Shown here: positions 52,126 to 54,100 of the stretch, in pieces
Numbering within the stretch: the first letter of the stretch is position 1
Layout: each line of letters opens with the position of its first letter
DNA from: Methylobacter marinus A45
Lineage (GTDB): Bacteria; Pseudomonadota; Gammaproteobacteria; Methylococcales; Methylomonadaceae
Direction of reading: 5' to 3'
DNA: 64,000 nucleotides
Assembly (NCBI RefSeq): GCF_000383855.1
Contig: NZ_KB912877.1
Location: forward strand, 3,537,917 to 3,601,916
Program-made: the position numbers and the translations under genes
The notes under the pieces: generated by a model
What the model was told of the DNA's origin: nothing
The model's input: only the letters and a program-made list of their open reading frames with translations
The model's database searches: none

Positions 52126-53026
52126 TCACGCTTTGATGACCGGCCTGTTTCTGGTCGCTTTAATCACGGCGACGGCGGCCGTGATTTACTGGATAGGCCA
52201 TTTCGAGCGCGAACGCGATCTGTATGTGATTTCAACGCGCGAATCCGTGTCCGGCCTCAATCCCGAGTCCACGGTATTCTACCGGGGCATTGCCGTGGGC
52301 AAGGTGCTCAAGGTCCGGTTCGATCCGAGAGATACGGGCACGATTCTGGTGCCGATTGAAGTCGATAAAGACATCACGCTGACCAAGGGCGTCTACGCCA
52401 CGCTGCGATTGAAAGGCGTTACCGGCTTGACCCAGATCGAACTGCAGGATGCGGGCAACATTCAGGAGGTTTTGCCGCCAGGCAATAACCCTATGACGCG
52501 TATCCCGTTAGTGCCTTCGCTGACCGACAGGCTGATGATGTCAAGCGAGGATCTGCTAAAGAAAGCCGAGCAGATCATGGGCCGCCTTAATAGCCTGCTC
52601 AGCGAGGAAAACGAGAAAAATATCAGCGATATCCTCCGAAATTTCAATACCCTGACCAACAAGTTTTCCGATTTGCAGACAGGCATCGATAAAGCACTGG
52701 CCGGTATTCCTGCGTTAAGCGCCGATGCCCAAAAGACATTGGCCCATATCAACGCCTTGACCGACGATCTGAAGCAATTGACCCGTAATGTGCAGGCACT
52801 CAGCAATAAAGCGGAAAGCCTTGCCGATAAAGGCGAAACCACCGGCAATCTGCTGCTGGAAACGACGATGCCGAAAATCAACGATTTACTGGTTGAGTTA
52901 CAGTCCGCCACGTCGCAGGTCAAACGCGTGGCCACCATGCTCGAGAACAACCCCCAGAGCTTGTTGTTCGGACCGAATGAACCAGAACCAGGTCCGGGCG
53001 AACCCGGCTATAAGGAGCCGAAATGA
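52112..53026 (+). CDS. mlaD: MlaD-type MCE-domain protein
   Basis: I chose the ATG at 52112 (MGRNNHALMTGLFL), giving about 304 residues with one N-terminal span (10-30) and one MCE domain (DLYVISTRESVSGLNPESTVFYRGI, cited in part: VSGLNPESTVFYRGIAVG). A long helical part follows, to about residue 285, with a proline-rich tail. The MCE domain forms a hexameric ring that shuttles lipid in the periplasm. The gene overlaps both mlaF and the lipoprotein gene. Confidence 0.9.
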   Translation: MGRNNHALMTGLFLVALITATAAVIYWIGHFERERDLYVISTRESVSGLNPESTVFYRGIAVGKVLKVRFDPRDTGTILVPIEVDKDITLTKGVYATLRLKGVTGLTQIELQDAGNIQEVLPPGNNPMTRIPLVPSLTDRLMMSSEDLLKKAEQIMGRLNSLLSEENEKNISDILRNFNTLTNKFSDLQTGIDKALAGIPALSADAQKTLAHINALTDDLKQLTRNVQALSNKAESLADKGETTGNLLLETTMPKINDLLVELQSATSQVKRVATMLENNPQSLLFGPNEPEPGPGEPGYKEPK

Positions 53027-53607
53027 GATATTCGAGTTTGTTAGTGTCAGCCATTATCATGGCGAGTGCCGGCTGCAGCGTTGCGCCCAAACCGTTGCAG
53101 CCTGCGCTGCACGACTTCGGCGCTCCTTATTTACAGTATGAAAACGGAACGTTCGCCAGGCCGGCCGTTACCGTCACCGCGCCCAAGTGGTTACGGGACA
53201 ACCGCATCCGTTACCGGCTGCTCTACGCGGCACCGACACGGGTAAGGTTCTATGCCTTGGACCGCTGGATTGCGCCGCCGCCGGAATTGTTCGAGCAGCA
53301 TCTGATCGCCGGGGCCAAGCCGCTGGAGTATTTACTGAATATCCGCCTGATGGATTTTGAGCAGCAGTTCGAAGCGTCGGATCGGGCCCGCGTGGTCATG
53401 CGTTTTTATCTGGAAGCCTATGCGCCCGACAGTAAACGCCAGCTCGGCGCTCACGAATTTCACCTGCAACAAGCGACGCAAACGCCCGATGCCGCGGGCG
53501 CGGTGACGGCCTTCGCCGGATTGGTGCAGCAGGCCGAAAGCAGAATTCAGGATTGGCTGGCGGGTCTGCCCGAAAGCGGCCAGCCTGATATTGCATCTGA
53601 ACCGTAG
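53023..53607 (+). CDS. PqiC/LetC-like ABC auxiliary lipoprotein
   Basis: The 194-residue lipoprotein has a lipobox SAGC (Cys18) and a C-terminal ABC-type transport auxiliary domain with RYRLLYAAPTRVRFYALDRWI and LLNIRLMDFEQQF. Like PqiC it likely sits on the inner face of the outer membrane and helps the MCE line reach it. It overlaps mlaD by four bases and is the fourth gene of the operon. mlaC is not visible, so this lipoprotein may stand in for that shuttle. Confidence 0.82.
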   Translation: MRYSSLLVSAIIMASAGCSVAPKPLQPALHDFGAPYLQYENGTFARPAVTVTAPKWLRDNRIRYRLLYAAPTRVRFYALDRWIAPPPELFEQHLIAGAKPLEYLLNIRLMDFEQQFEASDRARVVMRFYLEAYAPDSKRQLGAHEFHLQQATQTPDAAGAVTAFAGLVQQAESRIQDWLAGLPESGQPDIASEP

Positions 53608-53631: not shown

Positions 53632-53664
53632 AAAAAAAACCTCCCGGAGCCGGTGGCAACGGGA
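53632..53664 (-). terminator. Strong terminator for a minus-strand transcript
   Basis: Read on the minus strand, CCTCCCG and CGGGAGG pair across a GC-rich loop and are followed by eight T (53639-53632). On the plus strand there is no T run, so it serves a leftward transcript, not the Mla operon. Confidence 0.8.
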
Positions 53665-53784
53665 GGTATAAGAGATACAGAATTTGATAAGTTCTGAATT
53701 TTCACAGTCCGAGGAGGTATATGAAACGGGTGGAGATAAGCTTTTTTAGCTTGAATCTCATGGCGGCAATTATTGCCGTTAGAT
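53632..53784 (-). ncRNA. Candidate small RNA (about 150 nt)
   Basis: A promoter at 53820-53792 and a terminator ending at 53632 define a leftward transcript of about 153 nt that contains no leftward reading frame of note. The RNA would fold small hairpins (GGCAATAATTGCC, AAGCTAAAAAAGCTT, CAGAACTTATCAAATTCTG) and then the terminator. Between them lies an exposed CCTCC run, complementary to ribosome-binding sites. On the opposite strand the same bases form an AGGAGG-ATG start of a 25-codon frame (53721-53798), so the two readings compete. I know of no named family with this pattern. Confidence 0.6.
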
Positions 53785-53791
53785 GCCGCGT

Positions 53792-53820
53792 ATTATAATG
53801 CGACAATATATGGTTTACAA
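53792..53820 (-). promoter_or_regulatory. Promoter of the candidate small RNA
   Basis: TTGTAA at 53820-53815 and TATAAT at 53797-53792 are spaced by exactly 17 bp on the minus strand. The -10 is perfect, the -35 has four of six consensus bases. Transcription would start near 53784. Confidence 0.6.
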
Positions 53821-53950
53821 TGTGGATAATTATTAATAGATTGTTTCAATTTTATTGATAATAATCAATCCGGAACAGTTTGGCGTGGCGCTTATGAACG
53901 AAAGTTTCTAACTCTACAAGTCGATTTTCGTTAACCGAGGAGATTTATCC

Positions 53951-54100
53951 ACAAGAACTTACGCAAGCCTGTGGGGGCGACTTCAGTCGCCCATTCAGAT
54001 AAAAGGCGACTGCCAACAGTAGGCGCTTTAGGCGAAGTCGCCCCCACAGGTTTTAAACCCGCTTGTTTCGGCAGATGAACAGGCAAACTGCGTAAGTCCT
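53951..54100. repeat. Nested REP-like palindrome
   Basis: An outer inverted repeat (GAACTTACGCA near 53956 and its near-complement TGCGTAAGTCC near 54090) encloses an inner one: CCTGTGGGGGCGACTTC near 53968 against GAAGTCGCCCCCACAGG near 54034. Between are short GGCGAC strings. The inner motif is of the REP kind that is spread by REP-associated transposases. Confidence 0.75.

What the first reader, a model, noticed from the sequence alone, without database searches (positions are those of the whole stretch)
53632..53820. Unannotated small RNA gene on the minus strand downstream of the Mla operon
A perfect -10 (TATAAT), a 17-bp spaced -35 (TTGTAA) and a terminator with eight T bound a 153-nt transcript with no leftward frame. 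The RNA would carry three small hairpins and a C-rich CCTCC run complementary to Shine-Dalgarno sequences, a seed type used by known regulatory RNAs. The opposite strand shows AGGAGG followed by a 25-codon frame (53721-53798), so the alternative is a tiny protein gene; both could even occur.
Basis: partly seen in the sequence, partly recalled or inferred. Interest (0 to 1): 0.7.

Follow-up and report, generated by a model that had tools for sequence, protein, structure and literature searches.

The report
Small RNA that lost its protein
A short stretch of DNA in a methane-eating bacterium looks like a real, conserved regulatory RNA gene; its relatives in sister genera also encode a small membrane protein resembling one reported to help such bacteria tolerate acetate, but this copy keeps only the RNA.

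Summary
By comparative evidence the minus-strand sRNA gene is real; there are no expression data. Promoter, CCUCC-loop hairpin and T7-8 terminator recur in 26 distinct copies from Methylobacter and related Methylococcaceae. The plus-strand frame is not conserved (4-39 codons in 26 copies) and is rejected. A covariance model built from 3'UTRs of a conserved ~50-aa membrane-protein gene finds only this place in the 64-kb window (41 bits, E 2.9e-6). In sister genera one gene carries both the ORF (dN/dS about 0.11) and covarying C-rich hairpins. In window-type copies the ORF is gone; 11 of 26 keep a detectable ORF relic, the window copy itself not. Promoters share the published WatR motif ATTGTT-N11-AACAA at a fixed place (window 9 of 11). 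The protein fits WatS, WatR-controlled acetate-tolerance peptides of Methylomonas DH-1 (by description, not by sequence). Best model: a WatR-controlled RNA-only member of a dual-function watS family, masking Shine-Dalgarno sites in trans. WatR control, trans action and targets are inferred.

The parts
53841..53862 (-). WatR-like operator ATTATC-N11-AACAA, overlapping the conserved GAAACAAT box that starts 27 nt upstream of the -35 hexamer
   Evidence: 9 of 11 match to the published motif ATTGTT-N11-AACAA at the position shared by the family; GAAACAAT (7 or more of 8) exactly at -27 in 88 of 116 promoters, shuffled control 7 of 5800
53815..53820 (-). -35 hexamer TTGTAA
   Evidence: a TTG-type -35 with a 17-bp spacer in 26 of 26 copies
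53792..53797 (-). -10 hexamer TATAAT
53632..53785 (-). predicted sRNA, about 154 nt (start near 53785, end at the T-run)
   Evidence: R1 match 53632-53764, 128 bits, only hit in the window (the window is one of R1's own sequences); R2 match 53632-53731, 41 bits
53764..53778 (-). 5' hairpin CGGCAATAATTGCCG
   Evidence: minimum-energy fold; not part of the conserved block
53733..53759 (-). hairpin GAGATTCAAGCT..AGCTTATCTC; lies in the R1 positions (1-37) that coincide with the last codons of the small ORF in ORF-bearing copies
   Evidence: fold; register. ORF homology of this stretch in the window copy itself was not detected
53700..53726 (-). core hairpin TTTCATATACCTCCTCGGACTGTGAAA with the ACCUCCUCG loop (proposed seed; its complement CGAGGAGGT at 53710-53718)
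   Evidence: stem paired in 100% of cells. The first 17 of 27 nt were fixed by the search pattern; the other 10 nt are 0.89 identical in all pairs of 26 copies, against 0.69 upstream and 0.60 downstream
53678..53696 (-). second hairpin CAGAA..TTCTG
   Evidence: stem paired in 98.7% of cells
53632..53666 (-). intrinsic terminator CCTCCCG..CGGGAGG + T8
   Evidence: T8 in 25 and T7 in 1 of 26 copies
53721..53798 (+). plus-strand 25-codon frame proposed as alternative; judged not a gene
   Evidence: frame length 4 to 39 codons in 26 copies
53023..53607 (+). convergent lipoprotein gene after mlaD (conserved neighbour)
   Evidence: tblastn hit in 23 of 28 window-type loci tested

Best explanation
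The feature is a free-standing sRNA gene: a noncoding member of a multi-copy family of small-membrane-protein genes (WatS-like) of one methanotroph family. In many genera one promoter appears to drive one transcript with two products, a ~50-aa membrane peptide and a 3'UTR of hairpins showing CCUCC/CUCCU loops before an intrinsic terminator. In Methylobacter and related genera the mla-linked copy lacks the ORF and keeps promoter and RNA module. Likely mechanism: the LysR-type regulator WatR holds the promoter down and activates it under weak-acid (acetate) stress; the ~154-nt RNA then acts in trans, its ACCUCCUCG loop pairing with strong Shine-Dalgarno regions of target mRNAs and blocking ribosome binding, perhaps with Hfq. 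Shown by computation: conservation, homology to 3'UTRs of the protein genes, absence of the ORF, shared promoter with a WatR-like motif. Inferred: transcription, WatR control, trans pairing, Hfq use, targets, and the ORF-loss history of the window copy itself.
For: R1 (26 window-type copies) matches 151 of 237 family genomes, 25 of 29 genera. 66 of 108 copies examined carry an intact ~50-aa ORF directly upstream; median dN/dS 0.108 in 310 non-independent pairs, differences by codon position 2278/1540/7414. R2, built from 34 3'UTRs of ORF-bearing copies and no window-type copy, finds the window RNA (41 bits, E 2.9e-6) and matches 29 of 30 ORF loci fetched by protein similarity, among them 18 of 19 not used to build it and 8 of 9 in genomes that R1 had not matched (compared). 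Type-2 hairpins: 14 of 24 pairs with changes on both sides, shuffles 5.1; window type 4 of 22, shuffles 1.1. 0 of 26 window-type copies have the full ORF; 11 of 26 keep an ORF-DNA relic above the best of 1000 shuffles. Promoter pattern: 19 hits in 4 genus genomes, 0 in the reversed control, all 19 at known family members by coordinates. WatR motif at 9 or more of 11 in 85 of 116 promoters at one place, background 9 of 22,390. The loop also stands where no ORF remains, so cis control of that ORF cannot explain it. WatR/WatS: PMC10355033. Hfq gene present.
Against: No expression data. R2's sequences had been found through R1, so the R2 hit in the window is reciprocal, not fully independent. The window copy gave no ORF-relic hit; L002 and L004 scored 4.8 and 4.7 bits, below the shuffle maximum of 7.3. 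WatS identity rests on description, not on published sequences. The paper places WatR sites over the -35 boxes of watS genes; here the motif ends about 20 nt upstream of the -35 hexamer. watR was not sought in this genome. The motif is weaker in window-type copies (7-10 of 11). The window seed pairs no better with family start regions than with 45 window genes, so no target is supported. Loop invariance in the 26 copies is imposed by the pattern that selected them. R1's weak hits include a false one (L116).
Confidence: 0.55

Rival explanations
1. Decaying pseudogene: only promoter and terminator of a dead watS-like gene remain, without function.
For: ORF relic in 11 of 26 copies; the 60 nt upstream of the core are weakly conserved (0.69 identity, shuffled baseline 0.59).
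Against: Outside the stretch fixed by the search pattern the core is still 0.89 identical and the next 28 nt 0.78, against 0.69 upstream and 0.60 downstream; promoter kept in 26 of 26; second hairpin kept; lipoprotein neighbour kept in 23 of 28 loci.
Confidence: 0.12
2. Cis-antisense regulator of the mla operon: the RNA is complementary to read-through mla transcripts and controls their 3' end or stability.
For: Convergent with the mla lipoprotein gene in 23 of 28 window-type loci; the hairpin at 53640-53666 has no T-run on the plus strand, so mla transcripts might read through.
Against: Related RNA modules occur in loci without hits to the mla queries, though many of those stretches are only 0.6 kb. 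The best-conserved part is a structured loop, not the stretch next to mla.
Confidence: 0.12
3. Plus-strand tiny protein gene (25 codons) with an SD at 53712.
For: AGGAGG-TAT-ATG-AAA is present, and the like recurs in the 26 copies, which were however chosen by a pattern that contains its complement.
Against: Frame length 4 to 39 codons in 26 copies. The SD+ATG is the complement of the conserved sRNA loop.
Confidence: 0.02
4. The C-rich hairpins bind a protein, or act as an RNA sponge or decoy, rather than pairing with Shine-Dalgarno regions.
For: No target is supported by pairing energy; the structure is highly conserved.
Against: The loop is a single-stranded CCUCC, like the C-rich loops of sX13 that act on G-rich motifs (PMC3771888, passages).
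Confidence: 0.15

Closest known systems
WatR-regulated watS genes of Methylomonas sp. DH-1 (PMC10355033)
   Same: About 50-aa peptide with one TM, several paralogs, WatR motif ATTGTT-N11-AACAA; the window promoter carries it at 9 of 11.
   Different: The window copy has no ORF; the motif lies upstream of the -35 here, over it in the paper. The main text reports no RNA function: utr, untranslated, srna, non-coding and hairpin 0 hits, noncoding once, in a reference title. Seen: sections 10, 12, 16 and passages.
SgrS/SgrT dual-function sRNA (PMC4021124, passages)
   Same: A stress regulator drives one RNA with a 5' small-protein ORF acting on a transporter and a 3' base-pairing module before the terminator; Yersinia SgrS lacks the ORF.
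   Different: Rfam gave only a tRNA in the window; here a multi-copy family, membrane peptide, C-rich hairpin loops.
CcsR RNAs with ccaF1 (CIN1 locus, Rhodobacter; PMC10253847, passages)
   Same: Small-protein gene co-transcribed with downstream sRNAs.
   Different: The protein there is DUF1127; the family here has no DUF1127 hit. The C-rich motif of these RNAs is recalled, not read here.
sX13 of Xanthomonas (PMC3771888, passages)
   Same: Stem-loops with C-rich loops that repress mRNAs with G-rich motifs.
   Different: No ORF ancestry in what I read; sX13 activity does not need Hfq; sequence relation not tested.

Membership tests
WatR-regulated watS gene family | Promoter with WatR motif ATTGTT-N11-AACAA | tested here: met
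   9 of 11 in the window at the family's fixed position; but not over the -35 box as the paper describes
WatR-regulated watS gene family | About 50-aa single-TM ORF | tested here: not met
   Absent in 26 of 26 window-type copies; intact in 66 of 108 copies examined
WatR-regulated watS gene family | Sequence identity of the ORF family to published WatS1-4 | not testable with these tools
   Sequences are in figures and supplements (supplement cap 0)
WatR-regulated watS gene family | WatR-dependent induction by acetate | not testable with these tools
   No expression data for this organism
Small-protein 3'UTR RNA family (model R2) | Match to a model built without window-type copies | tested here: met
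   41.0 bits, E 2.9e-6, only window hit at E up to 1; the model's sequences had been found through R1
Cuckoo RNA / CIN1 locus | DUF1127 small protein in the same transcript | tested here: not met
   Pfam best hit DUF6949, below cut-off; no DUF1127 (one member protein)
Rfam 15 families | Covariance model at gathering score | tested here: not met
   Only a tRNA in the window; below-threshold matches at E 0.57 and up
sX13-type C-rich sRNAs | C-rich hairpin loops | tested here: met
   ACCUCCUCG loop
sX13-type C-rich sRNAs | Repression of G-rich target mRNAs | not testable with these tools
   Experiment needed; pairing survey gave no target

The most novel reading that the evidence does not exclude
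An ancestral WatR-controlled dual-function transcript (acetate-tolerance peptide plus C-rich riboregulator) has been partitioned among paralogs in Methylobacter: RNA-only copies (window locus and a type-2 copy near G000:C1:2164861) and protein-only copies (three of the four intact protein copies of this genome have no C-rich loop). The watS genes studied as peptides in Methylomonas would then also encode an overlooked trans-acting RNA.
Probability: 0.35. Interest if true: 0.75.

Novelty: new variant of a known kind. Interest (0 to 1): 0.62.

Why it matters
It may add an RNA layer to a published weak-acid tolerance system of biotechnological methanotrophs, predicts that watS deletion phenotypes could mix peptide and RNA effects, and offers a natural series (dual, RNA-only, protein-only copies within one family) for studying how dual-function RNAs split.

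Tried and rejected
Rfam at gathering and permissive thresholds: nothing. Pfam and NCBIfam for one small protein: nothing over cut-off. Plus-strand ORF: rejected. Second own-genome R1 hit L116: a bare terminator, treated as false. Seed pairing with family start regions: the window loop is not better than 45 window genes; the type-2 loop of L118 is best for L225 and L231 (0 of 45 as good), too few to claim. GAGGAGGT-ATG start sites in the genus gave leads only. The g3 copies with intact ORF and window-like core have no mla hit within about 1 kb, so they do not show the ancestral state at this locus. Class-wide protein search: 2 of 369 genomes, both of this family. Structure prediction was not run.

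Full report
OBSERVATION. Alone they are modest (5 promoter-like sites against 2.0 expected); the fold is stronger than all 200 shuffles (z -5.94). The own genome has one BLAST match. BLAST found it in 8 of 61 genomes, the own included; the match in G020 is only 38 nt of the terminator; 4 of 4 genus genomes match. A pattern found 23 GTDB contigs, all titled Methylobacter or Methylococcaceae. Genus naming is by contig: G003 and M. luteus, G001 and Methylobacter sp. BlB1 share contig lengths; G002:C3 fits a Methylobacter sp. YRD-M1 plasmid by position. The GTDB family name, recalled as Methylomonadaceae, comes from no call.

CONSERVATION OF THE RNA. After removing duplicates 26 window-type copies remained. 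All 26 have a TTG-type -35 and a TATA-type -10 with a 17-bp spacer, 81 to 219 nt upstream of the core; in L004, L019 and L022 it was not the top-ranked pair. The copies were picked by a pattern that fixes 17 of the 27 core nt, so the 0.94 identity of the core is partly built in. The other 10 core nt are 0.89 identical over all pairs, the next 28 nt 0.78, the 60 nt upstream 0.69, the 40 nt downstream 0.60; shuffled baseline 0.59. Against the six loci found by BLAST, the window scores 0.75, 0.84, 0.69 and 0.61 for these four, so the margin of those 10 nt is small there. Structure: 99.3% of cells paired, 4 of 22 pairs with changes on both sides, shuffles 1.1. The plus-strand frame runs 4 to 39 codons in these copies.

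A LARGER FAMILY. Model R1 from these copies matched 151 of 237 genomes of the family, 25 of 29 genera; weak hits include false ones (L116 in the own genome is a bare terminator). Many weaker hits sit directly after a ~50-aa hydrophobic ORF. Of 108 copies examined (26 window-type, 82 others), 66 have the intact ORF, 6 partial matches, 36 none. All 66 have at least one CUCCU/CCUCC before the terminator, 58 two or more, in 16 genera; they were found through the RNA model, so this count is biased. The ORF is under purifying selection (58 ORFs of 150 nt, 310 non-independent pairs, median dN/dS 0.108; differences 2278/1540/7414 by codon position). Model R2, from 34 ORF-bearing 3'UTRs and no window-type copy, finds the window RNA as its only window hit at E up to 1 (41 bits, E 2.9e-6). 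Its sequences had come through R1, so this is a reciprocal test. Less circular: of 30 loci fetched by protein similarity (L181-L210), 29 carry the element right after the ORF; 11 of the 30 were in R2, and of the 19 others 18 match; of 9 from genomes without an R1 match, 8 match (the miss in each case is L210). The protein query itself came from RNA-linked copies. The 3'UTR hairpins covary: 14 of 24 pairs with both-side changes, shuffles 5.1, 0 of 500 reaching it; I set part of this structure by eye, and its outer helix 1 is only 61.5% paired.

LOSS OF THE ORF. None of the 26 window-type copies has the full ORF; 5 have short partial protein matches. With an ORF-only DNA profile, 11 of 26 score above the best of 1000 shuffles (7.3 bits), ending at or near the place of the ORF stop; best E 4.4e-12. 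The window copy gives no hit and L002 and L004 give 4.8 and 4.7 bits, so loss is shown for sister lineages and inferred for the window. Protein search: 229 of 237 family genomes, 29 of 29 genera, up to 10 copies per genome; 2 of 369 in a class-wide sample, both of this family. The own genome has four strong protein matches, all intact, and two weak ones that I set aside. Of the four, one has a CUCCU loop and three have none. In the four genus genomes 4 of 18 intact copies match R2 at 48 bits or more. A type-2 RNA copy without ORF is also present (L118; 78 bits with R2).

SHARED PROMOTER. In 116 of 125 copies scanned a TTG/TATANT promoter was found; the other 9 were left out. GAAACAAT (7 or more of 8) lies exactly 27 nt before the -35 in 88 of 116, at -26 or -19 in 4, absent in 24; shuffled control 7 of 5800. 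The pattern GAAACWAT-N18..20-TTGT-TATANT, designed from these, hits 19 places in the four genus genomes, none in the reversed control, and by coordinates all 19 are family members, the window gene included. A paper on Methylomonas sp. DH-1 (PMC10355033; sections 10, 12, 16 and passages) describes WatR, a LysR-type regulator binding ATTGTT-N11-AACAA, which represses and on acetate activates watS1-5, unannotated ~50-aa ORFs, WatS1-4 with one TM segment, proposed to steer the WatABO efflux pump. That motif scores 9 or more of 11 at one fixed position in 85 of 116 promoters and 7 or more in 114; background 9 and 359 of 22,390; the window scores 9. A mismatch: the paper has the sites overlapping the -35 boxes of watS genes, here the motif ends about 20 nt upstream of the hexamer. 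The ORF family is probably WatS; sequences could not be compared, and watR was not sought in this genome. The paper's main text mentions no UTR or sRNA. My paper searches (7 of 7, 20 of 12,245, 20 of 109 and 4 of 4 papers listed) showed nothing describing this RNA; beyond PMC10355033 I saw listings only for these.

NEIGHBOURHOOD. The lipoprotein gene after mlaD is found by tblastn in 23 of 28 window-type loci tested (25 of the 26 copies, the window left out, plus L060, L098, L099; misses L005, L010, L028, L029, L032). In the other copies only L098 and L099 gave mla hits, within stretches of 0.6 to 3 kb.

MECHANISM. A loop kept where no ORF remains cannot serve that ORF in cis; trans pairing to Shine-Dalgarno regions, as sX13 acts on G-rich motifs with C-rich loops (PMC3771888, passages), is the simplest reading. 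An Hfq gene is present. No target is supported: the window loop pairs no better with family start regions than with 45 window genes. The arrangement parallels SgrS/SgrT, including the missing ORF in Yersinia (PMC4021124, passages), and loosely the ccaF1-CcsR locus (PMC10253847, passages).

VERDICT. A real, conserved, unannotated sRNA gene (my confidence about 0.95), most likely the RNA-only member of a WatS-like dual-function family (0.55 for the full model). New variant of a known kind.

Noticed in passing
window 53965-54053: 20-nt inverted repeat, 95% complementary, resembling a dispersed palindromic element.
   Followed up: no
L225; G000:C1:3537082-3537222, about 700 bp left of the window start: An intact WatS-like protein copy with the shared promoter lies just outside the window.
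   Followed up: partly
L231 (G002:C3:21781-21921): A WatS-like copy that by position fits a plasmid record of Methylobacter sp. YRD-M1 (NZ_CP091426.1), annotated there as hypothetical protein.
   Followed up: partly
L100, L102 (genus g3): Copies combining the intact small ORF with a window-like CCUCC core hairpin, without mla hits within about 1 kb.
   Followed up: partly
L079, L068 and further places: A start site GAGGAGGTGTTATG found once in each of the four genus genomes; in L079 and L068, the two fetched, it opens a 68-aa membrane-protein-like frame. A lead for a target.
   Followed up: partly
L118 (G000:C1, about 2164861-2165197): Type-2 RNA copy without ORF whose second loop (UCCUCCUCAU) is complementary to the AUGAGGA leaders of several WatS-like genes of the genus.
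   Followed up: partly
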